In this document: one piece after another, positions 1 through 61,693 of the stretch
How positions within the stretch are numbered: the first letter of the stretch is position 1
Layout: each line of letters begins with the position of its first letter
Assembly: GCA_943736015.1 (NCBI GenBank)
Contig: OX031060.1
Location: forward strand, 13,095,501 to 13,159,500
Direction of reading: 5' to 3'
Origin: Tridacna crocea
Taxonomy: Eukaryota; Mollusca; Bivalvia; Cardiida; Cardiidae
Length of the DNA: 64,000 bases
Position numbers and translations under genes: made by a program
Notes under the pieces: model-generated
Database searches by the model: none
What the model was told of the DNA's origin: nothing
The model's input: the letters and a program-made list of their open reading frames with translations, nothing else

Positions 1-425
1 GTCATTGGGACAGGATTCATTCCTTTCTAAATACTTATCTTAGTTTCCATGAGGATTATGTGGAAAAGCAGCAAGTGGCTTGGAAAGAAAATTCTGGAGT
101 ACTGTTAACTCTTTACCAAATGACAACATTTAAGACTAATTCAAATTGGAAGCATTTGCGAACAACAAAGTAAATGTGAATCAAAAATTAAGATTTGACT
201 TGTGAGGGGTAGAAAACACTGGGAAAAGGAGAAAATGCTGGTCACCAGCATTTTCTCTTTTTCCAACAATGTTTTCAAAAGTTCTCTATTTCAGGGTCGT
301 TGAAAGTTGGGATTGTGTCGTAATGGAATGAAAGAAATTGCAGGAAATCATGGATAGGTGCACTGGCGGCCATGATATTACTGAAATATTGTTGAAAATG
401 GTGTTTAAGATCAATCAAATATGGC
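1..425 (+). mobile_element. SINE 3' body interrupted by TH-I element at 105-327
   Basis: Positions 1-104 carry the AAGTGGCTTGGAAAG motif and 328-425 carry GGATAGGTGCACTGGC and GAAATATTGTTGAAAATGG. The same blocks are contiguous in the SINE at 46037-46345, so one copy was split by the hairpin element. Confidence 0.65.
105..327 (+). mobile_element. TH-I hairpin element
   Basis: Begins TTAACTCTTTACC; the central palindrome is centred near 245; the right end (GTCGTAATGGAA) is decayed. It sits inside a SINE copy, whose two halves flank it. Confidence 0.85.
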
Positions 426-542
426 CAAATGTTCAAGGTTATCCTTTCAAGGATTAATTTCTTGATAATTGTGACCATAGTTAGTTTGTCACCTGCAAAA
501 AGTTTCGATTTGGACAAGTCTAAAAAAATTCTGGTTTAGAGT

Positions 543-771
543 TTAACCCATTACCACACAATCCCTACTTTTGACGACCCTGGGAAAGAAGCCTTTAGAA
601 AACAATGTGGGAAAAGGAGAAAATGCTGGTAACCAGCATTTCCTCCTTTTCTCACAATGTATTCTATCCTTCACAAAACAAATTTCAAATTTTCAGTCAC
701 TTATATTTTGTCGTCTGCAAATGCTTTCGATTTTGACAAGCCATAATTTTTGTCATTTGGTAAGGAATTAA
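543..771 (-). mobile_element. TH-I hairpin element, full length
   Basis: TTAACCCATTACC at left and TAAGGAATTAA at right, with an intact central palindrome around 605-660. Confidence 0.88.
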
Positions 772-884
772 AAGCAACATTTTTTTTTTCCAACTTGAAT
801 GGTCCTTGGTACATGTGTCATACATAACCTTGGTATGATTTGTTTTAAGTCTACATATATAATGATATTATGTGAAGTTATGGG

Positions 885-1080
885 TTAACCCATTACTACA
901 CAATCCCTACTTTTGATGCTCCTGAGAAAGAACCAGCATTGTCTCCTTTTCCCACAGTGATTTTTACCCTTCTGGGAAGTTCCCAGAACAAATTTCAATT
1001 TTTCAGTCACCTTTATTTTGTCGTCTGCAAAGCTTTCAATTTGAACTGGTCTAAAATTTTGTTGTGTGGTAACGAGTTAA
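885..1080 (-). mobile_element. TH-I element lacking its left hairpin arm
   Basis: Both TTAA ends are present, but the sequence passes from GAGAAAG straight into AACCAGCATT: one palindrome arm and the GAAGCC block are deleted. Confidence 0.82.
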
Positions 1081-1151
1081 AAGGCTTTTAACATACATTA
1101 TTAGTATTACATGAATGTCTGCTGTAACACTTTGCCACATGATCCCCAGTC

Positions 1152-1381
1152 TTAAATCTTTACCACACGACAAAAAAGTAGACTGGTCCAAGTTGAAAGA
1201 ATTTGCAGATGACAATTCAAATGTGACTGAAAAAGAAAGAATTTGTTTTTGAAAAAGTTGAAAACAATGTGGAAAAAGGAGAAAATGCTGGATACCAGCA
1301 TTTTCTCCTTTTCCCGCAATATCTTTAAAAGCTTTTTTTCTCAGCGCTGTTAAAAGTAAGGATTGTGGGGTAAAGAGTTAA
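1152..1381 (+). mobile_element. TH-I hairpin element, full length
   Basis: Starts TTAAATCTTTACC and ends GGTAAAGAGTTAA. A 25-bp right-end scrap of another copy precedes it (1129-1151). Confidence 0.85.
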
Positions 1382-1436
1382 TGACTCCTGAGATCGGCCT
1401 TTGTGAAAACATCGCAGGAAAAAGAGAAAATGCAGG
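1378..1436 (-). mobile_element. TH-I fragment (left third)
   Basis: TTAATGACTCCTGAG to GAGAAAATGCAGG, then cut off where the next element begins. Confidence 0.6.
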
Positions 1437-1663
1437 TTAACCTTTACCACACAATGACGACTTTTTATGACCCTGAGGAAGGAGCCTTTTGAAAACATTG
1501 TGGGAAAAGGAGAAAATGCTGGCAACCAGCATTTTCTCCGTTTTCCACAATGTTTTCTATCATATCAAACCAAAATTGTACCATTTGAGCCACTTTGAAA
1601 TTGTTGTCTGCATATGCTTTCAATTTGGATAGGTCTAGATTTTGCCTTGTGGTAACAGGTTAA
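1437..1663 (-). mobile_element. TH-I hairpin element, full length
   Basis: TTAACCTTTACC at left and GGTAACAGGTTAA at right, with the palindrome intact near 1520. It follows the preceding fragment directly, which suggests insertion into that fragment. Confidence 0.85.
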
Positions 1664-2101
1664 TAGCATGTTCTCCCGGAATGTTTTCAAAGCCAGCATC
1701 ATGGTCATTAAAACTCGGGAGTGTTTGCCGAAGAGTCAAATGTGAACTAATAGCGTCAGCAAACCTTTTCAATGAAATATTAATTGTTATCCATTAGTGG
1801 AATATTATTGTGATTGACAGTTTCGTGTGGTGCCTAGTATTCCCAGTGAAACCTCTATAATTTTGTAATGGCTGTGCTGTTGTTTGTTTTATTGAATTTT
1901 TCTCCATAGATTGAAAAGGTTTATCTTAAATTTTTTTAATCAAGGGAAAAAAAAAACAGGATGGTTTAACCCTTTGACTCCATGTCACACAGCATAATAT
2001 TAGACAAAAGAACTGAAGATGACAAATAGAGGAAGGTTCAAATGATGGAACATGTTTTCCGAAAGCAACCTAATTGAACAGTGAAAACACAATGGACTTA
2101 G

Positions 2102-2325
2102 CCTAACTCTATACCAAATGACAAAACTTGATACTGCCCAAATTGAAAGCACTTGCAGAAGACAAACGTAACTCAAAAATTGAAATTTGTTTTCTGCAGG
2201 GTAGAAAACATTGTGGGAAAAGGAGAATATGCTGGTTACCAGCATTTTCTCCTTTTCCCACAATGTTTTCAAAAGGCTTCTATCTCAGAGTCATAAAAAC
2301 CAGGGATTGTTTGGTAAAGGATTAA
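2102..2325 (+). mobile_element. TH-I hairpin element
   Basis: Left end CTAACTCTATACC is mutated; right end GGTAAAGGATTAA; palindrome centred near 2238. Confidence 0.85.
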
Positions 2326-2345
2326 CTTATGAAGTATAAGGTGAC

Positions 2346-3160
2346 AAAATTTCTGAAATTGAAACCATTTGCAGACAACATACCAAATATGGTTCAGTAG
2401 ATGCGATTTACATAACAGGGAGATAAAAGTGAATTTTCATTTTCAAATGACATTTTCCAACCTTAAGAGATACATCACATCAAGTGAATCAAACAACAAA
2501 ATTTTGGACTCAATCAAATTCAAAGCATTTGCAGGGGACAAATTATCCCTTTACCAGATGACAAAAGTTTAGCCCTGTCCAAATTGAAAGCATTTGCAGA
2601 CGACAATTTCATTGTGGCTCAAATGCTGCAATTGGTTATTGATAGGGAAGAAAACTTTGTGGTAAAAGGAGAAAATGCTGGTTACCTTTTGCCACTATGT
2701 TTTCAAGAGGCTTCTTTCCAAGGGTTGTCAAAAGTTGTCATTGTGTGGTAAAGGTTTTATTGTGGCTGAGATGATGATAGACTTACCTTTGACTGAGTAA
2801 AAAGAAAGATATGGGAAAAGGAGAATACTAGTATGTGTTTTCTCCTCTCACAATATTTTCAAATGGCCTCAGTATCTCAAAGTTGTTAAAACTCTGGATT
2901 GTGTTGTAAAGGATTTATTTGTTGCCTGCAAATTTTTTGTATTTGAACCCTATGTCTTAAATTCTGTAATCGGGCAAGCATTAAGGTAGATCTGAAGTTT
3001 CAACCAGGTGACAATTTTTAGACAATCTGTTTCCAATTTGATGACATGAGATAATAATGCTGGCATTATCAAGAAAAGGGTAGAAAAATTGTGGGAAAAG
3101 GAGAACTTGCTGGTTAGCTGTATTTCATTTTCATTTTTTTCCACTTTGTTTTCTGTAAGC
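2346..3160 (+). mobile_element. Cluster of decayed TH-I copies
   Basis: K-end fragments lie at 2352-2390 and 2497-2541. A fairly complete copy spans 2542-2757 but its right palindrome arm is reduced. Degenerate copies lie at about 2770-2915 and 2997-3160. The hairpin sequences are decayed, so these look older than most copies. Confidence 0.6.
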
Positions 3161-3499
3161 TTTGTTCCCTAGGAGCCTTAATCGTTATATCTCTAAATTG
3201 TTTCATATTGTATTGAATGATTCTTGGTTGTGATGCCTATTCTCCTTCAGCATGTTCAAAGTTAGATTGATTGATTGATTGCATGCTGTTTTGCGTCGCT
3301 TTCAACATGATTTTAGTCATTACTGTGGTGACAGCTCACTTATTCATGCAAGTCTTTTGTTTCAGCAGTAGCATGTGTCACACAGTTAAGTTAGGTTACC
3401 AAGGAAACCCCGCAAAAAAGACAGTGTGAAGGTTAGAAGCGAGTGAGAACGTGGATAAACATTTGAGATTTTCTCTCATAGCATTTTGTAAGTGGTAGA

Positions 3500-3727
3500 G
3501 TTAATGCCTCTATGGAATTTCAGTATTTTAGACTTGTCCAAGTTGAATGCATTTGCAGACGACACAGTTGAAAAGCCCAAAAAATTAGATGTTGCTTTCG
3601 ATAGAGTTGAACATGTGATTTGAAAAAGGGAACATGTTGGTTAACAACATTCCCCCCTTTTTTCAGAATGTTTGCCAGTCCTCTTGTTTAGGGCTGTTAG
3701 AATTCAAGATTGTTTGCAAAAGGGTTA
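3500..3727 (+). mobile_element. TH-I element, degenerate
   Basis: The GACTTGTCC and TGCATTTGCAGACGAC blocks, a decayed palindrome near 3645, and the end AAAGGGTTAA. Confidence 0.7.
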
Positions 3728-3731
3728 AAGT

Positions 3732-3956
3732 TTAACCCTTTACCCCACAATTATGACTTTTAATGACTCTGAGAAAGAAACTTTTTGAAAATATTGTGGC
3801 AAAAGGAGAAAATACTGGTAACCAGCATTTTCTCCTTTTCCCAAAATGTTTTCTAGCCTTTTCAAATGAAATCTTATTTAGTCACATGTATTTTGTTTTC
3901 TGCAAATGCTTTCCGTTTAGACCAGTCTGTAATTTTGTTGTTTGATAAGGAGTTAA
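3732..3956 (-). mobile_element. TH-I hairpin element, first of a pair
   Basis: TTAACCCTTTACC to TGATAAGGAGTTAA. Its right TTAA (3953-3956) is also the left TTAA of the next copy. Confidence 0.88.
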
Positions 3957-5536: not shown

Positions 5537-7898
5537 TAGGGATGGCAACGAGTAACCGGTTAACCGAGTACTCGATCGAATGTCCGAGTATCGATTACTG
5601 AATTTGATATTCGAGTACTCGGTATTTTTTTCAAAAAAGTACCATTTTGCTTCCCGAGGAAACATTTCTTTGCAAAACAAACACTGCAGCTGATTAAATG
5701 TAATCAAAACATCGTTGCAAAAGTGCGGAAGTTACCGAAAGATGACCAAACAATTCACAATTTGACACGTGTTTGCAATAAACAACAACTGTGTCAATTA
5801 TAACGTTAAGCTTTTCACGTTAATCGCTATTCATTAAAGTTTTCGTAATTTTAGTAAATCAAAGGCTGGCTAATATGATCTAATTAGGGAGGAGAAAGTA
5901 ATCATCCTTAATCTTCACAGTATGACTGTGAAACTTATTTAGGGACCATGCGATCGCCAACATGCCGTTGTATACCTACCGTATTTTGCTTTAATTTTTG
6001 GGATAGTAAATTTTTTTTTCTTGTTCCAATACTAAGGTCTATAAAAAAATAATTATTTTATAAGCAGTCCCAAAACTTATGATCAGACAAGACACACTCG
6101 CAAACTGTAGGTCATTGACCCGTAACAAGTCGAACAATGCCGACATTAAAAAGCTACACCACTGATTTTATAAACCTACATCCTTATGCAGGTTGGTCTA
6201 TTTTTAGACAGATTGGAATTCCAGTCAATTCAATTTGTGCACTAAACAGTCCAAAACTTGGCTTTTTCCCATTGTTTTCGTTGATGATTAACTTGTAACT
6301 GATTATTGTCTATATCCTGGGCCAACGATGAAGATTGTTATTTTGCATTTTTTGGTAAAATCATGATATAATTTACCTGCTTACGTGGGGTGAATGACGT
6401 AAATTCCACTGACAAGGACCTGCTTGACTCGTTCTCAAATTTGATTGGTTCGTCGATCTTTGATCGATAAAACTCGGTTAGATTACTGAATGATTGATTT
6501 CTATTTATAAAGAACGAACCCGATTGACCGTGAAATACATGCTTGTCAACTCCATGGTAACCTCGGATGTATATGTATGTGTATCTTCAGCCCCTGCGAA
6601 AAGTAGTTCTTGAATTCATGAACAATTCCTGAACTACAGTTCATGAACAATCCCATGAACAGCAAATGGCCGGTTCATGAACCGTTTGTGTTCATGAACT
6701 TTTGGTTTTGTTCAACGAACAGTTCATGAACAGTTCATGAATAACCACTCTTAATCAGTTCAATAAACTGTTCCATGAATTAAAGTTCATGAACTGGTTG
6801 TAGTGTTTGAGACATACTTCTTTTTTGGTAGAAAACTTTGAATCTTAAATTCAACCCCTCCATTCCCATTGTTCAAAAAGGTTATGCAGCATCAAGTAGC
6901 TTTTTAAGGAGTTAGAGCAAAATGTACTTGTAGCCACACAGTAAATTATTATTTTTTGATTTGTTTAAAGTTACCCCTCTTACAGTAAATATCTGCAAAT
7001 TGCATGACTGAAAATGGGTTTAAGTTATTACCATCCTAATTCTTGTAGAAATTTCTTATCAGGTGATAAATAAGGATTTATACTGATATAATATTTTTGG
7101 GCTTTTCTAACTGACCAGAAATTGTTTTGATGTCCATCTTGAAATTATTTGTCGATATTTTGCAATTTTTCAAAAAAGGGAGGTAATTAATGTCTCCTTT
7201 TGTGATGAGAATAGAGTGGCCTAGATTTATAAGTGATAATTGTTAGATGGAATGAGTGGCTCAGTCAAAGTAGGACAATAATACTCATTTTTAATTATAG
7301 CACCTTTTTTAGGATACTATTACAGTGGAAATAGCTGTTTTCCATTAGAATGGTCCCACCTAAATACATCCTTGAACTTCTTAAAAAAAGCAAGTTCATG
7401 AATTGTTCAAGAACAATCAGTTCATGAACTGATGTAAGAGTCTATTTCATGAACTGTTAGTTATAGTTCATGAACACGGAGTTCATGAACCGCCAGTTCA
7501 CGAACAACTACATGACAGTTCACGAATTTTTCTACCAGTTCTTGAATAATTTATGAACAGTTCATGAACCGAAAACATGTACCATGAACTGTTCATGAAT
7601 TCAAGAACTACTTTTCGCAGGGGTGGGATACAAGCTTTATCACACCCTATATACACTTATATCCGAAATTTTTTGAATTGGGGTTTAAACAGTCTGTCAG
7701 GTGATTGGATTTTTAGGTCTTGCATCGGGAAACTCCCTTTGAAATCGTGGTGGGTTGGGAAGCATGCTTATGACGTTATGTGTGTAGAACTTGAAATAAA
7801 TGCTTGTAAACAAAGGGTGTCGTCCGAGTAACCGAGTACTCGATCGGAAGAATGACAGAGTACTCGAGTATTAAAATCGATACTCGTTGCCATCCCTA
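5537..7898. mobile_element. hAT-like non-autonomous element
   Basis: Inverted ends TAGGGATGGCAACGAGTA and CTCGTTGCCATCCCTA, with subterminal ACCGAGTACTCGATCG motifs on both sides. The 8-bp target duplication is CTCTTTAT / CTCTTTAC (7 of 8). Length is 2,362 bp, of which about 1,033 is a second inserted element. No transposase reading frame is recognisable. Confidence 0.85.
6591..7623. mobile_element. Inverted-end element with GTTCATGAAC clusters
   Basis: Perfect 33-bp inverted ends begin CCCCTGCGAAAAGTAGTTCT. The first and last ~200 bp are packed with the palindrome GTTCATGAAC and variants in both orientations, a pattern expected of transposase-binding subterminal repeats. The ~600-bp middle is AT-rich and non-coding. 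I could not see a convincing target duplication. It lies inside the hAT-like element at 5537-7898. Confidence 0.85.
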
Positions 7899-12156: not shown

Positions 12157-12352
12157 AGAGTTCCAGATTAGAGGGGGTGTATTCTAAATCCATTATTTCT
12201 TCTCCAAACCCTATGTTGTGGGCACTCATTAGAATCGTCTCTTTGAGACGATTCTGATGAGTACCCACAACATAGGGTCTAGTCGAGGATTATGGATTAT
12301 CAATATTTTCATTTTTGACATTGAAATCTCTCCCTTTATCTGGGGCTCTTGG
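12157..12352. mobile_element. Palindromic MITE (CCTATGTTGTGGG type), copy 1
   Basis: Central inverted repeat CCCTATGTTGTGGGCACTCA ... ACCCACAACATAGGG with arms of ~33 bp. Imperfect outer inverted ends (CCAGATTAGAGGGGGTG / TCTCCCTTTATCTGG). A second copy is at 15388. Confidence 0.75.
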
Positions 12353-12860: not shown

Positions 12861-13369
12861 TTAACCCTTGACCACACAAGAAAATTTTAGACCCATCGAA
12901 ATTGAAAGCAGTTACAAATGACAAAATAAATGACTGAAAAATTGAAATTTTGTTTTGGAAGGGTAGAAAACATTGTGGGAAAAGGAGAAAATGCTAGTTA
13001 CTTGCATTTTCTCATTTTCTCACAATGTTTTTAAAAGGCTTCTTTCTCAGGGTCGTTAAAAATCGGGCGCCTGAGTGGCTCAGTGGTGAGCATGTCAGAC
13101 TCATGACCTGGTGGTTGTGAGTTTGATACCTGGTTGAGGCAAACTTTCTTTCCGGCGTATTTTTGCCTCTCACCTCTGCTGAAGCATGTTAGAAATGTAG
13201 TCGGTGGCTTTGGAAAGACTGTTGTGTCATTACTGGTGTTAGAAAGCCAGGAAACATGTGTGTGTCACCGACCACCATGATGTGACCTTAGCTGTTAAAG
13301 TGGCGTAAACCCCAATACAACCAATACAACCAACCAATTTAAAATCGGGATTGTGTGGTAAAGAGTTAA
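12861..13369 (+). mobile_element. TH-I element split by a SINE
   Basis: TTAACCCTTGACC at 12861 runs to TTAAAAATCGGG (13067). It resumes at 13338 with TTTAAAATCGGG and ends GGTAAAGAGTTAA at 13369. The SINE therefore inserted in the N-end half. Confidence 0.88.
13068..13337 (+). mobile_element. tRNA-derived SINE, full length
   Basis: tRNA-like head with A box (TGGCTCAGTGGTGAGC) and B box (GGTTGTGAGTTTGATACC). The body contains GTCGGTGGCTTTGGAAAG and GACCACCATGATGTGACC. The tail is CCAATACAACCAATACAACC. It is flanked by a 12-bp duplication (TTAAAAATCGGG / TTTAAAATCGGG). The second-best copy is at 50092. It may belong to a known molluscan tRNA-SINE family; no library comparison was possible. Confidence 0.88.
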
Positions 13370-13841: not shown

Positions 13842-14283
13842 CAGTTGGGTCGACACTCAGTGGTTAGCATATCTGACTCATGACCAGATGGTTGCATGTT
13901 GGATACCTTAACTCTTTACGAAACAACAAAATATTGGACTAGTCCAAATGGAAAGCATTTGCAGATGACAAATGTAAATCAAAAATTGATTTTTGATTTG
14001 GGAGGATAAGAAACATTGTGGGAAACCGAGAAAATGCTGAGTACCAGCATTTTTTCCTTTTTCCACAGTGTTTTCAAAACCTTTCCTTCTCAGTATCGTT
14101 AAAAGTCTGGATTGTTTGGTAAAGAGTTAAGATGCGGCAAACTTTCTGTGAGCCTCTCAACTCGGTGATGAGTGTGACAAAAGTAGTCAGTGGCTTTAAA
14201 AGAAAGTTGTATCAGTACAGGTATGAGAAATCCAGGAAAAACACACATAGGTGCACTGACCACCTTGAAATGACAAAAGGCCG
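13842..14283 (+). mobile_element. tRNA-SINE copy split by a TH-I element
   Basis: The head (13842-13917: ACTCAGTGGTTAGC, GGTTGCATGTTGGATACC) and body (14131-14283: GCGGCAAACTTTC, CAGTGGCTTTAAAAG, GGTGCACTGACCACC) are separated exactly by the TH-I element at 13918-14130. Confidence 0.85.
13918..14130 (+). mobile_element. TH-I element inserted in a SINE at TTAA
   Basis: Both TTAA copies flank the element (13918-13921 and 14127-14130). Removing one copy plus the element restores SINE order (GGATACC-TTAA-GATGCGGC), aligning with GATACCTGGTTGAGGC in the intact SINE at 13068. This is direct support for TTAA target duplication. Confidence 0.92.
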
Positions 14284-14580
14284 TTAACTCTTTACCACAC
14301 AACAGAATCTTAGACTGTGCCAAATTGAAAGCACGGCAGGACTGGTGATAATACAAATGTGACTCATAAACTGAAATTTGTTTTAGGAAAGGTGGAAAAC
14401 TTTGTGCAAAAAGGAGAAAATGCTGGTGACAAGCAATTTCTCCTTTTCTCACAATGTTTTCAAAAGACTAGGAAAAAGAGAAAATGCGGGTGACCAGCAT
14501 TTTCTCCTTTTCTCACAATATTTTCAAAAGCTTTCTTCCAAAGGGTTGTTAAAAATCGGGATTGTGTGGTAAAGAATTAA
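14284..14580 (+). mobile_element. TH-I element with duplicated palindrome
   Basis: TTAACTCTTTACC to GGTAAAGAATTAA. Two consecutive hairpin cores (near 14430 and 14500) each have the TTTTCAAAAG flank, making the copy about 70 bp longer than usual. Confidence 0.85.
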
Positions 14581-15387: not shown

Positions 15388-15578
15388 GATGCTCCAGAAA
15401 AGAGGGAGTGATGGTATTCTAAATCCATTATTTCTCTTCCAGTCCCTATGTTGTGGGTACTCATTAGAATTGTCTCGGTATGATGATTCTAATGAGTACC
15501 AACAACATAGGGTTTGGAAGAGAATAATTGATATTTTCAATTTTGAAATTAAAATCACTCCCTCCATCTGGGGCTCTG
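15388..15578. mobile_element. Palindromic MITE (CCTATGTTGTGGG type), copy 2
   Basis: Central inverted repeat CCCTATGTTGTGGGTACTCA ... GAGTACCAACAACATAGGG, with outer ends AGAGGGAGTGAT and ATCACTCCCTC. Same organisation as 12157-12352. Confidence 0.75.
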
Positions 15579-26784: not shown

Positions 26785-27262
26785 TTAACCCTGGCATTAC
26801 CACACAATCCCTAGATGACCCTGAGAAAGAAGCCTTTTGAAAACAATGTGGGGAAGGGAGAAAATGCTGTAACCAGCATTTTCTCCTTTTCACCCAATGT
26901 TTTCTACCCTTCACAAAAAAAATGCAAATTTTCAGTCACTGTTATTTAACCCTTTACCCTACAAGGCATTTCTATGGTATCTCTAATTGACCCTAAATAA
27001 CAGCAAGGATGAAGCCGTTTCTTATGTGTGTATGAGACCTTTTGATAGTGTAGAAAACATTGTGGCAAAAGGTGAAATTGCTCGTGATGAGCAATTTCAC
27101 ATTTTGCCACAATGTTTTCCAAAGGCTCCTACAAGCAATGCGTAGAAATGAGTATCTATGGAGTAAAGGGTTAAATGTTGTCTGCAAATGCCGCTATGTT
27201 TTCAGAAGGCTTCTTAGTCTGGTTCATAAAAACCTGAGGGATTGTTTGGTAAAGGGTAAAGG
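26785..27262 (-). mobile_element. TH-I element interrupted by a TH-II element
   Basis: TTAACCCTGGCATTACC at 26785, palindrome, then CAGTCACTGTTATT at 26945. TH-I sequence (ATGTTGTCTGCAAATGCCG) resumes at 27175. The tail after 27187 is a rearranged N-end half. Confidence 0.8.
26946..27174 (-). mobile_element. TH-II element inserted in TH-I at TTAA
   Basis: TTAACCCTTTACCC to GAGTAAAGGGTTAA with both TTAA copies. The flanks join as TTATT-TTAA-ATGTTGTCTGC, the expected TH-I order. Confidence 0.9.
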
Positions 27263-28532: not shown

Positions 28533-28991
28533 CTAAACCCTTTACCAGATGACAAAATGTTAGCCTTGTCCAAATTGAAAGCATTTAACTCTTTACCCCA
28601 CAAGACAATTTTAGACTGGTCCAAATTGAAAGCATTTGCAGACAACAAAATAAAGGTGACTAAAAAGTCGAAATTTGTTCTGGGAAGGGTGGAAAACACT
28701 GTGGGAAGAGGAGAAAATGCTGGTTACCAGCATTTTCTCCTTTTCCGATAGTGTTTTCAAAAGGCTTCTTTCTCAGGGGCATCAAAAGTAGGGATTGTGT
28801 GGTAATGGGTTAATTGCAGACCACAGTTTAATTGTGGCTCAGATTGTGCAATTTCTCTTGTATAGGTTAGAAAACATTGTGGGAAAAGGAGAAAATGCTG
28901 GTAACCAGCATTTTCTTCTCTTCTCACCATATTTTCAAAAGGCTTCTTTCCCAGGTTCGTTAATCATCAGCATTGTGCAGTAAAGGGTTAA
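28533..28991 (+). mobile_element. TH-I element split by another TH-I element
   Basis: The K end CTAAACCCTTTACCAGATGA runs to GAAAGCATT (28584). It resumes TTGCAGACCACAG (28814), has its own palindrome near 28895 and ends AGTAAAGGGTTAA. Removing 28589-28813 restores one element. Confidence 0.85.
28585..28813 (+). mobile_element. TH-I element nested in TH-I, young subfamily
   Basis: TTAACTCTTTACCCCACAAG to GGTAATGGGTTAA; intact palindrome; both TTAA copies present at the junctions with the older copy. Confidence 0.9.
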
Positions 28992-36546: not shown

Positions 36547-37855
36547 CTTTTTACCACAATCTCAAATTTCAACAGCCCCGAGGAAGATGCCTTTTGAAAA
36601 TGGAGAGAAGAGAAAATGCTGGTAACCGGCAGTTTCTCCTTTTTCTGCAATGTTTTCTAGCCTTCCAAAACGGAAATTCAAGTTTTCAGTCACATTTACT
36701 TTTTATACGCCCGTCGAAGACGGGACGTATTATGGGATCACCCGTGCCGGGCGGGCGTCCGATGCGGGCGGGTGGGCGGGCGGCGTCCAGTTCTTTGTCC
36801 GGAGCATATCTCCAAAACTATACAAGCTAGGGTTATGAAATTTCATGGGTGGATAGATCTCATGGAGGGGGAGTGCAGTGCACAGGAATCATAACTCTTG
36901 CTCGCTTAACTTTTGAGTTATTGCCCTTTGTTGTTTTTCATACTTGAATTTTGTCCGGAGCATATCTCCAAAACTATACTAGCTAGGGTTATGAAATTTC
37001 ATGGGTGGATAGATCTCATTGAGGGGGAGTGCACTGCACAGGAATCATAAGTCTTGCTTGCTTATTTTTTGAGTTATTGCCCTTTGTTGTTTTTCATACT
37101 TGAATTTTGTCCGGAGCATATCTCCAAAACTATACTAGCTAGGGTTATGAAATTTCATGGGTGGATAGATCTCATTGAGGGGATGTGCAGTGCACAGGAA
37201 TCATAAGTCTTGCTTGCTTAATTTTTGAGTTATTGCCCTTTGTTGTTTTTCATACTTGAATTTTGTCCGGAGCATATCTCCAAAACTATACTAGCTAGGG
37301 TTATGAAATTTTATGGGTGGATAGATCTCATCGAGGGAGAGTGCAGTGCACAAGAATCATAACTCTTGCTTGCTTAATTTTTGAGTTATTGCCCTTTGCC
37401 GTTTTTTATACTTGAATTTTGTCCGCTGAATATCTCCAGAACTATACTACCTAGGGTTATGAAATTTCATGGCTGGATAGATCTCACAGAGGGGGAGTGC
37501 AGTGCACAGGAATCATAACTCTTGCTCGCTTTATTTTTGAGTTATTGCCCTTTGTCGTTTTTCATACTTGATTTTTGTCCGGAGCATATCTCCAAAACTA
37601 TACTAGCTAGGGTTATGAAATTTCATGGGTGGATAGATCTCATTGAGGGGGAGTGCAGTGCACAGGAATCATAACTCTTGCTCGCTTAATTTTTGAGTTA
37701 TTGCCCTTTGTTGTTTTTCCATACTTGAATTTTGTCTGGTGCATGCCCCAGCTTTACAACTTGGGGTAAGACGGGCGTGTCTTGCGACAATTTGCCGCTC
37801 TTGTTTAATCTGCTAATATTTTCAATTTTGACCGGTCTAAATGGTAAAGAGTTTA
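36547..37855 (-). mobile_element. TH-I element split by a HINE-like element
   Basis: CTTTTTACCACAATCTC through the hairpin to TCACATTTACTTT (36702). It resumes after the insertion at 37805 with TTAATCTGCTAATATTTTC and ends GGTAAAGAGTT. Confidence 0.82.
36703..37804 (+). mobile_element. HINE-like element with six 156-bp monomers
   Basis: Subterminal inverted repeats ACGCCCGTC (36707) and GACGGGCGT (37770), and a GC-rich 5' microsatellite. TTTGTCCGGAGCATATC-type monomer starts lie at 36794, 36950, 37106, 37262, 37418, 37574 and 37731. The 3' stem TGTCTTGCGACA is followed by CTCTTGT. It lies between two T residues of a TH-I element, as known for Helentron-type insertion. Confidence 0.82.
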
Positions 37856-38955: not shown

Positions 38956-39184
38956 TCAACTCTTTCCCAAACAAGCCCTTGTTTTTTACGTGTCTGCAGG
39001 AAAAGTCTTTTGAAAACAGTGTGGGAAAAGGAGAAATTGCTCGTAATGAGCAATTTCTCCTTTTCCCACAGTGTTTTCTATCCTTTCTAAGAACTTTTTG
39101 CCATTTTGTCCAAATCTAAAATTGTCGTCTGCAAACTCTTTCGGTTTGGAAGAGTCCAAAATTTGTTGTTTGGGAAAGGGTTAA
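38956..39184 (-). mobile_element. TH-I element with TH-II hairpin core
   Basis: TH-I termini and flanks (TCAACTCTTTCCCAAACAAG ... GGGAAAGGGTTAA), but the apex reads GAAATTGCTCGTAATGAGCA, the TH-II type. Both arms match each other. Confidence 0.9.
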
Positions 39185-40532: not shown

Positions 40533-40761
40533 TTAACTCTTTACCAAACAATTCCTGGTTTTCACAACTCTGTAGAAGAACGTCATTGAAAGCACTGAGG
40601 GAAAAGGAGAAAATGCTGGTTACCAGCATTTTTTCCTGTTCCCACAATTTTTTGTATGGTTTCCAAAACAAACTTCAGTTTTTGGGTCACTTTAATTTTG
40701 TCATCTGCCTAGGTTTTGAGTTTGGAACAGTGTAAAATTTTGTGGTCTGGTAAAGAGTTAA
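40533..40761 (-). mobile_element. TH-I element (chain of three, 1st)
   Basis: TTAACTCTTTACC to GGTAAAGAGTTAA; its last TTAA is the first of the TH-II copy at 40758. Confidence 0.88.
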
Positions 40762-40986
40762 CCCTTTACTCCATAGATACTCATTTCTAAACATTGCTTG
40801 TAGGAGTCTGCGGAAAACATTGTGGCAAAAGGTGAAAATGCTCGTGACGAGCAATTTTACCTTTTGCCACAATGTTTTCTACAGTATCAAAAGGTGTCAT
40901 TTACACATAAGAAACGGCTTCATCCTTGCTGTTATTTAGGCTCAATTAGAGATACCATAGAAATGCCTTTTGAGGTAAAGGGTTAA
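40758..40986 (+). mobile_element. TH-II element (chain of three, 2nd)
   Basis: TTAACCCTTTACTCCATAG to GGTAAAGGGTTAA; arms GTGGCAAAAGGTGAAAATGC / GCAATTTTACCTTTTGCCAC. Confidence 0.9.
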
Positions 40987-41211
40987 CTCTTTACCACACA
41001 ATCCCAACTTCTAAGGACCCTGAGAAAGAAAGCTATAGAAAACATTGTGGGAAAAGGAGAAAATGCTGGTAACCAGCATTTTCTCCTTTCCCACAATATT
41101 TTCTACCTTATCAAAGTCACAAATCGTCATATTAGAAAAGATTTAATTCATTTGCAGATGCTTTGAATTTAACCCAGTGCAAAAAAATTTGTCGTCTGGT
41201 AAAGAGTTTAA
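40983..41211 (-). mobile_element. TH-I element (chain of three, 3rd)
   Basis: TTAACTCTTTACC to GGTAAAGAGTTTAA; intact palindrome near 41075. Confidence 0.88.
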
Positions 41212-44242: not shown

Positions 44243-44471
44243 GTAACCCTTTACCAAACAATCCCTGGTTTTTACGACCCTGAGTTTGAAGCCTTTTGAA
44301 AACATTGTTGGAAAAGGAGAAAATGCTGGTAACCAGCATTTTCTCCTTTTCTCACAATGTTTTCTACCCTCCTTGAGAATAATTTTAATTTTTGAGTTCC
44401 GTTTATTTTGTCGTCTGCAAGTGCTTTCAATTCCGACCACTGCGAAATTTTGTCGTTTGGTAAAGGGTTAA
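44243..44471 (-). mobile_element. TH-I hairpin element
   Basis: GTAACCCTTTACC to GGTAAAGGGTTAA; palindrome near 44335; shares the last TTAA with the next copy. Confidence 0.9.
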
Positions 44472-44696
44472 CACATTACCACATGAGAAAATTTTAGACT
44501 GGTCCAAATTGAAAGCATTTGCAGACGACAAAATAAAGCTGAGTGAAAAACAGAAATTTGTTCTGGGAAGGGTAGAAAACACTGTGGGAAAAGGAGAAAA
44601 TGCTGGTTACCAGCATTTTCTCCTTTTCCCACAGTGTTTTCAAAAGGCTTCTTTCTCAGGGGCGTCAAAAGTAGGGATTGAGTGGTAATGGGTTAA
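44468..44696 (+). mobile_element. TH-I hairpin element, young subfamily
   Basis: TTAACACATTACCACATGAG to GGTAATGGGTTAA; nearly the same sequence as 24719 and 26103; perfect palindrome with CACTGTGGG / CCCACAGTG. Confidence 0.92.
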
Positions 44697-49249: not shown

Positions 49250-49511
49250 TATATGGCTTGGAACATGCGAAAAAGGGCATTCGGACATTTGCGTAAAGTG
49301 TCGTTTCGGATCAGCCTGCGCAGGCTAATCCGAGACGACTCTTTCCGTTTTTATGTAATTTTCTGTTTTGCACAAGTCTACTGTAGCACAAAATCTAATG
49401 GAGTTGTAAAGTGCCGTCTCGGATTAGCATGCGCAGACTGCGCAGGCTGATCCGAGACGACACTTTACGCAAATATCCGAATGTCCCTTTTCGCATATTG
49501 CAAGCCATATA
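49250..49511. mobile_element. Palindromic MITE with ~75-bp inverted ends
   Basis: TATATGGCTTGGAACATGCG ... CGCATATTGCAAGCCATATA, continuing inward through GGACATTTGCGTAAAGTGTC and GGATCAGCCTGCGCAGG. It is flanked by TA on both sides, suggesting a TA-target element. The ~60-bp unpaired centre is AT-rich. Confidence 0.85.
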
Positions 49512-50060: not shown

Positions 50061-50534
50061 TTCTGTACAAAATGACAAAATTCTGGACCAGTGCCCACCT
50101 GGGTGGCTTCGTGGTGAGCGTGTTGGACTCGTGACCTGGTGGTTGTGAGTTCGATACCTGGTTTAGGCGAACTTCCTTTGAGGCATATTTTTGCCTCTCA
50201 CCTCTGCTGAAGCATGTGAGAAAACTAGTCGGTGGCTTTGGAAAGAAAGTTGTGTTAGTACTGGTATGAGAAAGCTAGGAAATACATGTACATCACCGAC
50301 CGCCATGATATGACCTTAGCTGTTAAAGTGGCATTAAACCCCAAATTCAAAGCATTTGCAAACATCAAAACTAACGTGACTCAAAAACTGAAATTTGTTC
50401 TGTGAAGGGTGGAAAAAATTGTAGAAAAAGGAGAAAATGCTGGTTACCAGCATTTTCTCCTCTTCCCTCAATGTTTGCAAAAGGCCTCTTTCTCAGAATT
50501 ATGAAAAACAGGGATTGGTTGGTAAAAAAGTTAA
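50061..50534 (+). mobile_element. TH-I element split by a SINE
   Basis: TTCTGTACAAAATGAC...TGGACCAGT, then the SINE, then CAAATTCAAAGCATTTGC, a hairpin near 50445 and GGTAAAAAAGTTAA. Confidence 0.82.
50092..50345 (+). mobile_element. tRNA-derived SINE, full length
   Basis: Head GGGTGGCTTCGTGGTGAGCG and B box GGTTGTGAGTTCGATACC. Body GTCGGTGGCTTTGGAAAG. Ends TTAAAGTGGCATTAAACCCC. Colinear with 13068-13337 but lacking its CCAATACAA tail. Confidence 0.88.
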
Positions 50535-54719: not shown

Positions 54720-55992
54720 AGTTAGCTCCACTGGCTGAAGGCCAGCGGGCTTATGTCATGGCCCGGTGTCCGTTGTGCGTCCGTCCGTCTGTGCGTGTGT
54801 GCGTCCGTCCGTCCGTCCGTGCGTACGTGCGTTAACTTTTATTTCAAACATCATCTTCTCTGAAACTACCCATCCAATTTTGATGAAACTTCACAGAAAT
54901 GATCCTGCCATGGTCCTCTTCAGAATTCCTTGAAAGAATTTTATTCCTTCAAAAACTGTGGTTGCCATGGCAACAAAACTGAAAAATATTGAAAATTTTT
55001 GAAAATCTTCTTCTCTGAAACCATAAGGCGTAGGGCTACCAAATTTGGCATGTAGCTTTATCTAGTGGACCTCTACCAAGTTCCTTCAAATATTAGCCCT
55101 GGGGTGAAAATTGGCCCCACCCCGGGGGTCACAAGTTTTATATGGGCTTATATAGGGAAAACTTTAAAATCCTTCTGGTACCTAGCCATAGGGCCTAGGG
55201 CTGCCAAATTTGGCATGTAGCTTTATCTAGTAGATCTCTACCCTGAGTGCCCAAATAATAGCCCAGAGGTCAAATTTGGCCCGGCCCCGGGGGTCACAAG
55301 TTTTATATGGGCTTATATAGTGAAAACTTTAAAAATCTTTTCATACCAAGCCATAAGGCCTAGGGCTACTCAATTTTGCATCTAGCTTTATCAAGTGGTT
55401 GTCTACCAAAGGTGCCCAAATTGTAGCCCTGGGGTCAAATTTGGCCCTGTCCTGGGGGTCACAAGTTTTACATGGGCTCATATTGGGAATTTTTTAAAAA
55501 TCTACTTGTACCTAGCTATAAGGCCTAGGGCTACCAAATTTTGCATGTAGCTTTATCTAGTGGGCCTCTACCAGGAGGGCCCAAATTATAGCCTTAGGGT
55601 CAAGTTTGTCCCCACACCAGGGGTCACAAGTTTTACATGGGCTTTTGTGATGAAGATTGTTACTAACCATAATAAAGACTAGGACCACTAAATTTAGCCC
55701 TGTCTCATGGATTTTATGTTTTACAGGGCCTTTTTTTTTATAACCACACATTCTAGACCTGTGTTATTTGGTATGGGGCTTTATCTTGTAGACCTCCACC
55801 AGGATTCAAGTAATTATAGCTTTGTGGCCAAAACTGGATTTGCCCAGGGGTCACAAATTTATTTGGTTTTTATGGAAAAAAATTGTATGCCCTCAAGTTT
55901 GAAACCAGTTGGCCAAATAATGTAATGTTTAGCTTGTAGTGTTTTTACGAATTAGCCAGTGGAGCGATACAGGGCCATCATGGCCCTCTTGT
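54720..55992 (+). mobile_element. HINE-like element with 165-bp monomers
   Basis: Perfect 12-bp subterminal inverted repeats GCTCCACTGGCT (54725) and AGCCAGTGGAGC (55954). A CGTCCGTCCGTC microsatellite at 54776-54832. Monomers carry TAGGGCTACC(A)AAATTTGG at 55031, 55196, 55361 and 55526 (exactly 165 bp apart), and a shorter fifth near 55680. The 3' stem GGGCCATCATGGCCC is followed by CTCTTGT. This is the textbook layout of non-autonomous Helentrons. Confidence 0.85.
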
Positions 55993-57456: not shown

Positions 57457-57526
57457 GTATGAATTGGCAATAAGCACAACTGATATAATACTTCTTGATA
57501 TGCAGATGTAGCACATACCTTTGTTA

Positions 57527-58643: not shown

Positions 58644-59161
58644 ATTTTACCTGTAAACTAAAGGTTAGGTATCACTCTATGAAATGTCAACATGTTTCAT
58701 TTATTGCTTTTGGATGAATAAGACATCTATATTGATGCTGTCATTGGCTTTACAGAAATCTTTGCTTTTTCATACTGCTGGCTGTGTACTTCATAAAAAT
58801 TATATGATTAAAACCCACTATAACTTTCTGCATAGTTTGGAGGGCCACACAATTTGACAATATTCCCACCTCCATTATTCATATGGTCCTGTTGAAATAG
58901 ACATTGGTACATGGATTATGAGCATAATATCAATGTAAACTGTTACAATTAAAGTGCCAAAACTACATGTAAATACCAAAAGTGTTTCGCCAAAGCTGTA
59001 TTAAAGGAACAAATTTTTCTTTTCCCATACAGTTGTCTAGGTCTTCTATTATATCAGGTGACTAGTGTTAATAAGGTTTTGAGGTATCCTGTGCACTGAC
59101 ATATAAGTAGGTTACTACATGCAAAACTAATTACATATTATGCTTTTTTCTGTTCTTTCAG
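58644..59161. other. REV3L intron 12 3' part, no recognised repeats
   Basis: AT-rich sequence with TTCTGTTCTTTCAG as the exon 13 acceptor; no mobile element identified. Confidence 0.4.
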
Positions 59162-59340
59162 AGATGCTGAAGGTGTTAGTGCTGACTTTAACCTAGAAGG
59201 TATGGATGACACTTGGATAGAGTCTCCAAGGCAAATAAAAGCAGACAAAGATCATGTTGTCGAAGGCGACCAGTCAGACAGTGATGCAGATAGTGACATT
59301 ATTCCACAGTATGATGGACCAGGAGATGAAAAGTCCACAA
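59162..59340 (+). CDS. REV3L: REV3L coding exon 13: acidic, DS-rich
   Basis: It encodes (R)DAEGVSADFNLEGMDDTWIE, then SPRQIKADKDHVV and an Asp/Ser-rich end (DQSDSDADSDIIPQYDG, DEKST). The acceptor is TTCTGTTCTTTCAG and the donor GTAAGTCA, both strong. Phases are 2 in and 1 out. Its position matches the vertebrate SSTEDDDSSSGEEMEW acidic stretch, but alignment is weak. The SDSDAD run is a plausible CK2-type phosphorylation site (inference). Confidence 0.88.
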
Positions 59341-59484
59341 GTAAGTCAAAGCATCACCTTCTGCATAGAGCACTTTGTCTTGGTCAGCAGATATTTGCAA
59401 GAAAAGCCATTGCTTGTTGTGAGCAATTTTTCTTTCTGACACATTGTTTTTACCTCGTGTGGATATAACGAGCAATAATTCATG

Positions 59485-59854
59485 TTAACCAGTTATAGCA
59501 TTACAAAATTTTAGACTGATCCAAATTGAAAGCATTTGCAGACTACGAAATAAAGGTGACTGAAGAATAGAAATTTGGTTTGAGAAGGGTAGAAAAAATT
59601 GCGGGAAAGGGTGAAAATGCTGGTTACCAGCATTTTCTCCTTTTCCCACAATGTTTTCTGAAGGTCTACATCTCAGGGTCATAACTTTGAGATTGTGTAG
59701 TAAAGAGTTGACTAAATTTGGTTTGGGAAGGGTAGAAAAAATTGCGGGAAAGGGAGAAAATGCTGGTTACCAGCATTTTCTCCTTTTCCCACAATGTTTT
59801 CTGAAGGTCTACATCTCAGGGTCGTAAATTTGAGATTGTGTGGTAAAGAGTTAA
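59485..59854 (+). mobile_element. TH-I element with tandemly duplicated right part
   Basis: TTAACCAGTTATAGC at left. The segment from GAAATTTGGTTTGAGAAGGG through the palindrome to GTAAAGAGTT (about 59568-59711) is repeated at 59712-59854, ending GGTAAAGAGTTAA. The two copies share the odd AAAATTGCGGG and GAAGGTCTACATCTC variants. Confidence 0.88.
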
Positions 59855-60071
59855 CTAGTTTTGACATAACCAATACATGTATGTAAGGAATCTTGGACAC
59901 TTTTAAACATTCAGTAAATAGGGACAATACCAAAGCATATAATAAAACCAACATTTTGTTGAAGATTGCCCATAATGACTTTGTGTCAATCAGAGATCAT
60001 CTTTCATGATTCTTCATGAAGAATTTTGATTTATGCCTACTTGTCAACAGAAGTTGTTTTGCATAGAAGTG

Positions 60072-60210
60072 TTAACCCATTACCACACTTTTGATGACCC
60101 TGAGAAAGAAGCCTTTAGAAAACACTATGGGAAAAAGAGAAAATGCTGGTAACCTTTTTCCACAATGTTTTCCATCCTTCACAAAAGAAATTTCAAATTT
60201 TAAGTAGCTC
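60072..60210 (-). mobile_element. TH-I left part
   Basis: TTAACCCATTACCAC; hairpin reduced to AATGCTGGTAACCTTTTTCC; stops at TTTTAAGTAGCTC where the HINE-like array begins. Confidence 0.75.
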
Positions 60211-60215
60211 TTCTC

Positions 60216-61431
60216 TTGAAATTTTGTCAGAATGTTTGCCTCGATGAAATCTCGGACAAGTTCGAAATTGGGTAAAAAACTAGGTCATTAGGTCAAATCT
60301 TAGAAAAACCTTGTGTACGCTCTAGAGGCCACATATTCAGTCCGATATTCATGAAACTTCGTCAGAATGTTTGCCTTGATGAAATCTCAGATGAGTTTGA
60401 AAATGGGTCATGTTGGGTAAAAAACTAGGTCACAAGGTCAAATCTTATAAAAACCTTGTGTATGCTCTAGAGGCCACATTTTCAGTCCAATACTCTTGAA
60501 AGTTGGTCAGAATGTTTGCCTTGATGATATCGAGGTGGAAAATGGGTCATGTCGGGTCAAAAGCTAGGTCACTGTTTTTAAAAAAACATTGTGTATGCTC
60601 TGGAGGCCACATTTTCATTCCAAAACTCTTGAAAGGTGGTTAGAATGTTTGTCTTGATGGTATCTTACATGAGTTTGAAAATGGGTCATTTTGGGTGAAA
60701 AACTAGGTCACCAGGTCAGTTGTTAGAAAAACCTTTTGAACGCTTGTAAAGGCCACATTTTCAGTCCAGAACTCTTGTAAGTTGGTCAGAATGTTTGTCT
60801 TGATGATATCTCTGACATGTTTGAAAATGGGTCATGTTGGGTCAAAAATTAGGTTACCAGGTCAAGTCTTAGAAAAACCTTGTATACGCTCTGGATGCGA
60901 CATTTTCAGTCCAACACTTTTGAAAATTGGTCAGAATTTTTGCCTTGATAATATCTTGGATGAGTTTGAAAATGGGTCATGTGTCAAAAACTAGGGCAAT
61001 AGGTCAAATGTTATAAAAACCTTGTATTTTTCTCTGGAGGACACATTTTCAGTCCTATACTCCTGAAACTTGTTCATATTAATTGTCTTGGTGATACCTT
61101 GAATGAGTTTTGAAAATGGGTCATGTGGAGTGAAAAACTAGGTCAGAGGGTAAAATATTAGAAAAACCTTGTGTATACTCTAGAGGCCACATTTTCTGCC
61201 TGATACTCTTCAAACTTGGATTTGGTGATGTCTCAAAAGAGTTTGATTATGGGTAATTGTCAGGTCCAAAACTAGGTCACTTGGTGAAATCTTAGAAAAA
61301 CCTTTTGTAGGCTGTAGAGGCCGTATTTTCCGTCCAATACTCATGAAACATGTTCAGAATGTTTTGTCTTATTGATATCTCAAAAGTGTTTGATAATGGG
61401 TCCTGTCTGGTAAAAAACATGGCCCTCTTGT
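60216..61431 (+). mobile_element. HINE-like tandem array, 5' truncated
   Basis: About eight to nine ~133-146-bp monomers. Units begin near 60226, 60361, 60506, 60639, 60785, 60930, 61072, 61216 and 61352 (GTCAGAATGTTTGCCTTGAT). Each has GAAAATGGGTCATG, AAAACTAGGTCA and AGGCCACATTTTCAG blocks. The 3' end GGCCCTCTTGTTTT matches the other HINE elements. No 5' terminus is visible. Confidence 0.75.
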
Positions 61432-61508
61432 TTTCTTTTTCCACATTATTTTTATAAAAGCCTATTTTGAAAGAGTCGTCTGAGCACATGATTATTTCGT
61501 AAAGGATT
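61432..61508 (+). mobile_element. TH-I right-end fragment
   Basis: CTTTTTCCACATTATTTTTA, AAAGCC and CGTAAAGGATTAC. Confidence 0.55.
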
Positions 61509-61529
61509 ACAGTGTTTTTGTCACTGACT

Positions 61530-61693
61530 TAACCATTTAAAAAGCAATCCAGTAACCAGCATTTTCTTTTTTCCCACAATGTTTTCAGCCCTATCAAAGA
61601 TGGAAATCATCATTTGAGCTACATTTAAACTGTTGACTTCAGATGCTTTTAGCTTGGTCCAGTCCAAAATTTTGTCGAGTGGTAAAGGGTTAA
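61530..61693 (-). mobile_element. TH-I element, 76 bp upstream of REV3L exon 14
   Basis: TTAACCATTTAAAAAGCAATC at left, left arm missing (CCAGTAACCAGCATTTTC), right end GGTAAAGGGTTAA. Confidence 0.78.

What the first reader, a model, noticed from the sequence alone, without database searches (positions are those of the whole stretch)
105..61693. A dominant hairpin-centred TTAA element family (TH-I), ~110 copies in 64 kb
Seen: ~225-bp units with TTAACYCTTTACC...GGTAAAGRGTTAA ends, two different subterminal halves, and a ~66-bp near-perfect central palindrome present in nearly every copy. Density is about one per 500-600 bp, in both orientations, across the upstream region and most REV3L introns. 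Known: TTAA target sites and CCC...GGG-type termini are piggyBac hallmarks. Inference: a piggyBac-mobilised MITE whose large central palindrome is unusual for this superfamily, since palindromes in MITEs normally are the inverted ends themselves.
Basis: partly seen in the sequence, partly recalled or inferred. Interest (0 to 1): 0.85.

Follow-up and report, generated by a model that had tools for sequence, protein, structure and literature searches.

The report
Palindrome-centred piggyBac mini-transposon flooding a genome
A 229-base parasitic DNA element, very probably moved by cut-and-paste enzymes of the piggyBac type whose genes lie elsewhere in the same genome, fills over a third of this window and carries inside it a long mirror-image sequence that stayed paired while the rest of the element drifted, which suggests the hairpin helps it spread.

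Summary
The window holds 139 copies or fragments (130 family A, 9 sister family B; 37.5% of its bases), 72 of them end to end. The 1.05-Gb host genome holds 114,197 complete elements with exact ends. Ten arbitrary 5-kb stretches are 14.5% element.

The piggyBac reading is supported. A copy inside another piggyBac transposon (L031) shows a clean 4-bp TTAA duplication. Two transposase-bearing piggyBac families, L040 and the 7.2-kb PB4, share the 5' end: main subfamily 30/35 positions to L040, CCCATTACC subfamily 28/35 to PB4 (and to L040); other piggyBac families 18 or less.

The palindrome is the new part. It sits at the same columns (56-122 of 229) in both families and was present in 60 of 60 elements fetched by their ends (of 100 listed). 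In the window it is as conserved as the ends (10% and 11% divergence, flanks 22%). All four paired differences between A and B are mirrored double changes. Resident copies carry mostly unpaired mutations, so pairing is kept in spreading lineages and not repaired in place. I infer a cis-acting role in transposition; the mechanism is unproven.

The parts
105..61693 (.). span holding 139 copies or fragments of families A (130) and B (9) on both strands
543..771 (+). full family A copy, TTAA at both ends
44468..44696 (-). near-consensus family A copy of the CCCATTACC subfamily (S1), both TTAA intact
44573..44643 (-). hairpin of that copy (model columns 54-124), with the paired C-G variant at columns 63/115
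40533..40761 (+). family A copy, first of a chain of three sharing TTAA sites
40758..40986 (+). family B copy (different halves, same length and hairpin position), middle of the chain
40811..40881 (+). hairpin of a family B copy; the four paired differences of the B consensus from A are mirrored double changes
40983..41210 (+). family A copy, third of the chain
38956..39184 (+). family A copy whose hairpin centre is of the B type (two paired changes), an intermediate hairpin
1437..1663 (+). family A copy inserted at the hairpin centre of an older A copy; one alignment fits a 4-bp TTAA duplication, an automatic count is mixed
28585..28813 (-). family A copy nested in another A copy (28536-28585 and 28814-28991); joined flanks fit no duplication, an exception
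26946..27174 (-). family B copy nested in an A copy; duplication length ambiguous
13908..14130 (-). family A copy in a SINE-like repeat; duplication length ambiguous
59486..59854 (-). locally duplicated A copy (143-bp tandem duplication, two hairpins)
61550..61693 (+). last A copy of the span, truncated on its left

Best explanation
TH-I is a non-autonomous piggyBac-superfamily element (a MITE). It is excised and pasted into TTAA by transposases of two related piggyBac families in the same genome, the L040 type (6.4 kb) and PB4 (7.2 kb). Its left 38 bp is the autonomous 5' end cut down to one of the four 35-bp subterminal repeats. Different TH-I subfamilies appear to follow different autonomous families. 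Its 33-pair palindrome, at a fixed distance from both ends, is kept paired and kept in sequence in the copies that give rise to new copies. The most likely reason is that it acts in cis as DNA during transposition, for example as a dyad-symmetric site for transposase C-terminal domains, or as a bend or cruciform that helps synapsis. Shown: ends, TTAA duplication, candidate partner families, hairpin in the sampled complete elements, covariation between lineages, decay in copies. Inferred: that PB4/L040 transposase moves TH-I, and that the hairpin helps it.
For: TTAA duplication against intact paralogs. End match: A 30/35 to L040, S1 28/35 to PB4, other piggyBac families 18/35 or less; at the three columns that tell S1 from A, PB4 has the S1 base at 3 of 3 and L040 the A base at 2 of 3. 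End type and left-half motif are linked: 28 and 9 against 5 and 47, P 1.5e-10, near-duplicates removed. L040 and PB4 align at both extreme ends and share the four-repeat array; a second L040-type copy starts at the same base. Transposase identity. Hairpin in 60 of 60 fetched end-selected elements. Divergence of 78 window A copies: ends 0.111, hairpin 0.097, halves 0.218. A/B: 8 changed paired positions form 4 mirrored pairs, P 6e-6. 56 double-changed cells against 16.7 in shuffles, 0/500. In young family B, 63 single against 3 compensated double changes in 24 copies.
Against: No hairpin was found in L040 or PB4 outside nested TH-I copies (palindrome scans; partial arm-like matches remain), so the enzyme does not need it for its own element. 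S1's left end matches L040 as well as PB4 overall (28/35 each); only the diagnostic columns separate them. TH-I's right half beyond about 13 bp matches neither autonomous 3' end. Window copy 28585-28813 fits no TTAA duplication and three others are ambiguous. In 26 B copies the hairpin diverges slightly less than the halves (0.0446 against 0.0581, P 0.039), so weak copy-level effects are not excluded. The number of distinct pairs with double changes exceeds shuffles only weakly (13 against 9.7, 29/500). All five near-identical PB4 transposase matches show one in-frame stop in the alignment to L040.
Confidence: 0.75

Rival explanations
1. The palindrome has no function in transposition: it is kept paired by hairpin-templated repair (quasipalindrome correction), and looks conserved because few source lineages spread.
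For: A palindrome can correct one arm from the other (established mechanism, recalled). Some single A copies carry double changes not seen elsewhere in the sample. Compensated doubles in B are 3 against 0.5 expected, though shuffles give mean 1.0 and up to 4.
Against: Correction keeps pairing but not sequence, yet A and B hairpins keep 61 of 71 bases while halves keep 18 of 41 and 36 of 93. In B 63 changes are single and 3 compensated, so correction is rare in resident copies.
Confidence: 0.2
2. The hairpin acts as RNA: transcribed copies fold into a 32- to 34-bp double-stranded stem that feeds small-RNA or editing pathways and favours persistence of the element.
For: The RNA folds at -54.4 and -55.0 kcal/mol, z -15.8 and -14.2.
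Against: No Rfam family reaches its threshold in the window. A near-perfect stem with a 3-nt loop is not a typical microRNA precursor (recalled). No expression data are available here.
Confidence: 0.2
3. The element belongs to Kolobok, the other superfamily that duplicates TTAA.
For: TTAA target; the Kolobok lineage KolobokP is rich in bivalves (PMC9587614 abstract and passages).
Against: Kolobok termini are 5'-RR...YY-3' (PMC9587614); these are 5'-CY...RG-3'. The end-matched autonomous elements encode a piggyBac transposase.
Confidence: 0.02
4. The hairpin is an ancient separate palindromic element that landed in a TTAA MITE and hitchhikes, conserved by common descent alone.
For: The window holds two copies of a different free palindrome (12208-12278, 15432-15524).
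Against: Hairpin divergence equals that of the ends while the halves drifted about twice as far. Mirrored substitutions accumulated stepwise (A, intermediate, B). Hitchhiking predicts neither.
Confidence: 0.1

Closest known systems
piggyBac superfamily MITEs (for example mPok1 and mPok2 of Daphnia Pokey)
   Same: As recalled: TTAA target, CCC/CTC...GGG/GAG type ends, short TIR, no ORF, trans-mobilised by a piggyBac transposase. Pokey MITEs were seen only in a search listing; their piggyBac membership is recalled.
   Different: A 33-pair conserved palindrome between two unlike halves, and copy number near 10^6 by extrapolation.
piggyBac and piggyBat transposons
   Same: piggyBac's ends are asymmetric (35-bp and 63-bp minimal ends, PMC7351741 passages). 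Transposase C-terminal domains bind a 19-bp palindrome in piggyBac; in piggyBat's left end an imperfect palindrome and a G motif recur, the motif at bp 11, 55 and 99 (PMC11707139 passages). The L040/PB4 array recurs every 35 bp. The L040 ORF aligns with piggyBat from its residue 73 to its last residue.
   Different: The TH-I palindrome is about 67 bp, lies at 56-122 bp, and was not found in its candidate partners outside nested copies.
Nematode PALTTAA2 / piggyBac palindromic repeats
   Same: Repeat family named for TTAA and palindromy and annotated with piggyBac (PMC1431705 passages).
   Different: As I recall, there the inverted ends themselves form the palindrome; here it is a separate internal block.
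Bacterial REPINs
   Same: A family of miniature mobile DNA with palindromes and hairpins (title and abstract start seen in a listing; movement by a transposase in trans is recalled).
   Different: Bacterial, unrelated transposase, no TTAA (recalled); analogy only.
Kolobok
   Same: TTAA duplication.
   Different: RR...YY termini and a different transposase.

Membership tests
piggyBac superfamily (non-autonomous) | 4-bp TTAA target duplication | tested here: met
   L031:844-1070 in a PB2 copy; joined flanks match intact paralogs L015 and L017 at 116 of 117 with one TTAA. 9 shared-TTAA chains, inside the 5-95% range under random TTAA targeting (9-20) though below the mean of 13.6-15.2. L033 one base off. 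Window 28585-28813 does not fit; 26946-27174, 13908-14130 and 1437-1663 ambiguous
piggyBac superfamily (non-autonomous) | termini of CCCTT/CCCAT type with short TIR | tested here: met
   TTAACYCTTTACC / TTAACYCATTACC; PMC10813416 passages list CCCTT and CCCAT among conserved motifs
piggyBac superfamily (non-autonomous) | autonomous relative with the same ends and a PF13843 transposase | tested here: met
   L040 and PB4. The match covers the 5' 38 bp and the first bases of the 3' end, not the TH-I right half. Whether the transposases are active is unknown
piggyBac superfamily (non-autonomous) | seamless excision and transposase-dependent movement | not testable with these tools
   needs an excision or transposition assay
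MITE | short, no coding capacity, high copy number, uniform length | tested here: met
   229-bp consensus; 29 of 60 fetched elements are exactly 229 and 46 of 60 lie in 228-230 (the pattern allowed 216-246); 114,197 exact complete copies
Kolobok | 5'-RR...YY-3' termini | tested here: not met
   termini are CY...RG; Kolobok rule from PMC9587614
Kolobok | Kolobok transposase with these ends | not tested
   no Kolobok profile was searched in the genome

The most novel reading that the evidence does not exclude
The palindrome is a second, internal pair of transposase-recognition sites: each arm holds an inverted, end-like motif (CCTTTTCC-CACAAT against the end CCTTTACCACACAAT), so one TH-I carries four end-like sites. 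By keeping one of the four 35-bp subterminal repeats of its autonomous parent and gaining the hairpin, it became a better substrate than the parent, which would explain roughly 10^6 copies against about a hundred transposase matches.
Probability: 0.15. Interest if true: 0.8.

Novelty: new variant of a known kind. Interest (0 to 1): 0.55.

Why it matters
MITEs are usually read as passive deletion products whose only working parts are the ends. Here an internal palindrome evolves under about the same restraint as the ends, by paired substitutions, in a very large piggyBac MITE expansion (about 15% of a 1.05-Gb genome by a 50-kb sample). It comes with two transposase-bearing candidate partner families, so the question of what makes a MITE win can be tested directly. 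If the hairpin raises transposition, it bears on how piggyBac ends are recognised and on the design of compact piggyBac vectors.

Tried and rejected
Rejected: Kolobok (termini wrong); an Rfam RNA (0 matches at gathering threshold); other piggyBac families as partners (PB2, PB3, PB5, L011, L039: 18/35 or less against the A and S1 left ends and 21/35 or less against all five tested TH-I ends, the highest being L039_3 against B_5). A partner for family B was not found.

Led nowhere: Pfam on nine window ORFs found no transposase, only one sub-threshold FTH match; exact hairpin core in viral contigs and genome contigs, 0 and 0. Paper searches listed no piggyBac MITE with a conserved central palindrome; one search held an ill-formed term and returned nothing, and Repbase and Dfam were not available, so this is weak. 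The TIR-like motif in the hairpin arm reaches 22 of 2000 shuffles in the best of 18 tests, not significant after correction. A planned genome-wide count of double hairpin mutants at one base pair did not complete.

Dropped rows and biases: the A profile uses 34 of 46 candidate full copies (7 went to B, 5 poor ones were left out). In the loci sample overlapping or duplicate loci were left out (34 used) and copies with an identical central 50 bp removed (109 to 106); this missed some repeats, so one search removed rows 97% alike or more (A 185 to 177, B 26 to 24) with little change. Divergence counts use copies with at least 60 or 62 of 71 hairpin columns. The 60 C1 elements were chosen by me from 100 listed places to enrich B-like and odd left ends, all within the first 1.6 Mb of C1; they were selected by exact ends, so any sample with them understates divergence of the ends (the window-only figures are free of this). 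83 gap-free hairpins were aligned: 82 of the 83 printed (L029:3094-3168 left out) plus L063; this favours better-kept hairpins and includes a few near-duplicates from PB4 copies (78 rows remain if near-duplicate locus rows are dropped; the pair counts were not repeated on the 78).
Full report
WHAT IS THERE. Ends within two mismatches occur 76 and 74 times on the + strand of the window. Profiles of two families, built from 34 full copies (A) and 7 (B), find 139 non-overlapping copies or fragments, 130 A and 9 B. These cover 24,006 bases (37.5%); 72 run end to end and 105 cover the hairpin. Of the 72, 35 keep TTAA at both ends, 29 at one and 8 at neither. The window is G000:C5:13095501-13159500 of a 1.05-Gb assembly in 31 contigs.

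ANATOMY. Both consensus sequences are exactly 229 bp: TTAA, a CYCTTTACC-type end, a 53-bp left part in all, the hairpin block (columns 54-124), a 105-bp right part, TTAA. The palindrome proper occupies columns 56-122 (33 pairs round one unpaired base) in both families without a gap. A and B agree at 12/12 and 11/12 of the end bases and 61/71 hairpin bases, but only 18/41 and 36/93 in the halves. With the best-matching edges excluded the left half is at chance (columns 14-45, P 0.25) and the right half only weakly above it (130-216, P 0.03), so A and B halves may be very diverged homologues or partly unrelated. Offset zero is the best of 25 offsets for the right half.

TARGET SITE. The cleanest proof is outside the window. 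A TH-I copy at L031:844-1070 sits in a PB2 piggyBac copy; the flanks joined over one TTAA match the intact paralogs L015 and L017 at 116 of 117 bases with no gap. A second insertion in PB2 (L033) differs by one base in a T/A run. In the window 9 pairs of copies share a single TTAA. Random insertion into TTAA would give 13.6-15.2 for 72 insertions, 5-95% range 9-20, so there is no excess of self-targeting. Against: 28585-28813, nested in another A copy, fits paralogs only if no target bases were duplicated (40 of 40 paralogs). Two further cases (26946-27174 in an A copy, 13908-14130 in a SINE-like repeat) are off by two or three bases. For 1437-1663, inside a hairpin centre, the alignment fits four bases, but the automatic count, which set the border one base off, gave 2 for 15, 0 for 6 and 4 for 1 of 22 paralogs.

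THE PARTNER TRANSPOSONS. The genome holds 118 matches to the piggyBac transposase profile PF13843, in several families with different ends. Two families match TH-I. L040 (G000:C7:18507265-18513640, 6,376 bp) begins and ends with TTAACTCTTTCCCACACA, has a 35-bp subterminal array (3.7 units of ACAATCCCGACTTTTAACGACCC...) at its 5' end, and matches A over 38 bp at 89%. Its 508-aa reading frame matches PF13843 at 4.4e-89 and aligns with piggyBat (residues 73-508 against 141-575, E 6.6e-40). PB4 (7.2 kb; two copies 99.93% identical over 7,200 bp at unlike sites, C9 and C15) begins TTAACCCATTACC, has the same four-unit array at the same spacing with the variant TTTTGACGCCCCT, and ends GGTAATGAG-TTAA in two of three right junctions read; the C9 copy reads AATC there. 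L040 and PB4 align with each other at both extreme ends, which fixes L040's borders. A second L040-type copy (L117) starts at the same base.

SUBFAMILIES AND PARTNERS. Over columns 5-39, A matches L040's 5' end at 30/35 and PB4's at 25/35. Subfamily S1 matches both at 28/35, so total identity does not choose between them. The three columns that tell S1 from A do: PB4 has the S1 base at all three, L040 the A base at two and another base at the third, and PB4's right end GGTAATGAG is that of the S1 consensus. The best other piggyBac end scores 18/35 against A or S1. Across copies the state of the end and the left-half motif go together: A-type ends 28 GACGC against 9 AACGA, T-type ends 5 against 47, P 1.5e-10 (27 of 116 copies with mixed motifs left out). 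The TH-I right half beyond the terminal bases matches neither partner. TH-I keeps one of the four subterminal repeats. In piggyBat, subterminal sites inhibit transposition and their removal raises activity (PMC11707139 abstract and passages). By analogy, loss of three repeats may have made TH-I a better substrate; this is inference.

SCALE. Exact 13-bp ends: 279,935, control 157. Complete elements with exact 12-bp ends: 114,197, control 0. The window has 11 of these, so it is about 1.6 times denser than average by this measure. Exact 29-bp hairpin cores: 110,483 + 111,106, control 0. Ten 5-kb stretches taken at position 20,000,001 of ten contigs hold 41 hits and 7,265 bases (14.5%), range 4.5-36%, all ten with at least one. 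This extrapolates to about 860,000 copies and 150 Mb, a rough figure.

THE HAIRPIN IS A CONSERVED PART. Of 100 listed complete elements found by ends alone I fetched 60 (favouring B-like and unusual left ends): 60 of 60 have a palindrome whose centre lies between columns 78 and 99, mostly at 89; scores run from 7 to 35. In 78 window A copies divergence from consensus is 0.111 in the ends, 0.097 in the hairpin and 0.218 in the halves; in 134 A copies of window and loci 0.112, 0.110 and 0.230. Adding the end-selected C1 copies gives 0.096, 0.098 and 0.215 for 177, with the ends biased low. Part of the larger divergence of the halves is subfamily structure: close pairs (flank distance under 0.15, 31 pairs) differ by 0.119 in halves and 0.095 in hairpins, while distant pairs (0.35-0.40, 380 pairs) differ by 0.376 and 0.184. 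In the young family B, halves and hairpin differ by 0.063 and 0.064 in 10 copies not chosen by their ends, and 0.059 and 0.045 in all 24. So restraint acts between source lineages and is weak or absent on resident copies.

COVARIATION. A and B differ at eight paired hairpin positions, forming four complete mirrored pairs (chance 6e-6 for the placing alone). Intermediates exist: 38956-39184 and L063 have the inner B-type pairs with the outer A-type pairs. Of 100 listed cores matching a pattern that allowed every combination at two such pairs, 95 are A-type and 5 double-changed, none mixed (single mutants are expected to be few, so this is supportive only). On 83 gap-free hairpins 56 cells are changed on both sides against 16.7 +/- 3.7 in shuffles, 0 of 500; pairs with a double change are 13 against 9.7, reached by 29 of 500 shuffles, and further pair types 44 against 41.0, reached by 77 of 500. 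Slid controls give 20-24 double-changed cells. The evidence is strong for double-changed cells and weak for the number of distinct pairs, and relatedness inflates the former. In resident copies most changes are single: in 177 A copies 796 single, 86 compensated and 55 uncompensated double (shuffle mean 29.6, maximum 47 of 300); in 24 B copies 63, 3 and 1 (shuffle mean 1.0, maximum 4). In the window alone, 24 compensated against a shuffle mean of 11.7, maximum 23 of 1000, with 7 of the 24 the C-G type at one subfamily pair (63/115).

HOW IT PROBABLY WORKS. Shown: a TTAA-inserting element whose ends match resident piggyBac transposons. Established for the superfamily: the transposase excises through hairpin intermediates and pastes into TTAA (PMC7351741 passages). 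Inferred: PB4/L040 transposase supplies the activity. For the palindrome, three main readings remain. (a) A DNA site acting in cis; piggyBac and piggyBat bind palindromes with paired C-terminal domains, though theirs are shorter and mostly nearer the tip. I rate this near 0.5. (b) An RNA hairpin, 0.2. (c) Passive upkeep by hairpin-templated repair, 0.2, which explains pairing but not conserved sequence. Palindrome scans of L040 and PB4 found the hairpin only in nested TH-I copies; partial arm-like matches elsewhere in both look like old fragments. That argues for an advantage peculiar to the short element and not a requirement of the enzyme.

NOVELTY. The element is a member of a known kind, a piggyBac MITE, in an unusual variant: off-centre palindrome, unlike halves, evolution by compensated changes, very high copy number. 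My paper searches listed nothing like it, but they cover one open library, and repeat databases were not available. A survey of bivalve transposons found MITEs to fill a considerable part of genomes and did not classify them further (PMC10294476 passages).

Noticed in passing
window 12208-12278 and 15432-15524: Two copies of a different, nearly pure palindrome (CCCTATGTTGTGGG.ACTCATTAGAAT...) outside the TH-I hits: another foldback-type repeat.
   Followed up: no
window 49406-49468: A further 63-bp imperfect palindrome (GTAAAGTGCCGTCTCGGATTAGC...) outside the TH-I hits.
   Followed up: no
window 13079-13225, 50111-50253 and the flanks of 13908-14130: A SINE-like repeat (tRNA-like by eye), about 70% alike between copies, used here as an empty-site test.
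   Followed up: partly
window 36794-37744, 55021-55644, 60268-61418: Satellite-like tandem arrays of 156, 165 and 145 bp units.
   Followed up: no
window 14409-14530, 59571-59857: Local tandem duplications of TH-I hairpin regions (64-bp and 143-bp units), suggesting slippage at the palindrome.
   Followed up: no
L013-L019, L023 (PB2), L021-L022 (PB3): Other piggyBac families with long open reading frames and copies up to 99.9% identical, so several piggyBac lineages look recently active in this genome.
   Followed up: partly
L041:3154-3587 and 5911-6076 and other PB4 copies: Copies of the young PB4 transposon carry TH-I elements nested inside them, so PB4 spreads TH-I passengers as it moves.
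   Followed up: partly
L039:1924-6178: A 4.3-kb piggyBac candidate with TTAACCCTATCCTCCACA ends and a 491-aa frame; its 3' end scores 21/35 to family B's 5' end, a weak lead to B's partner.
   Followed up: no
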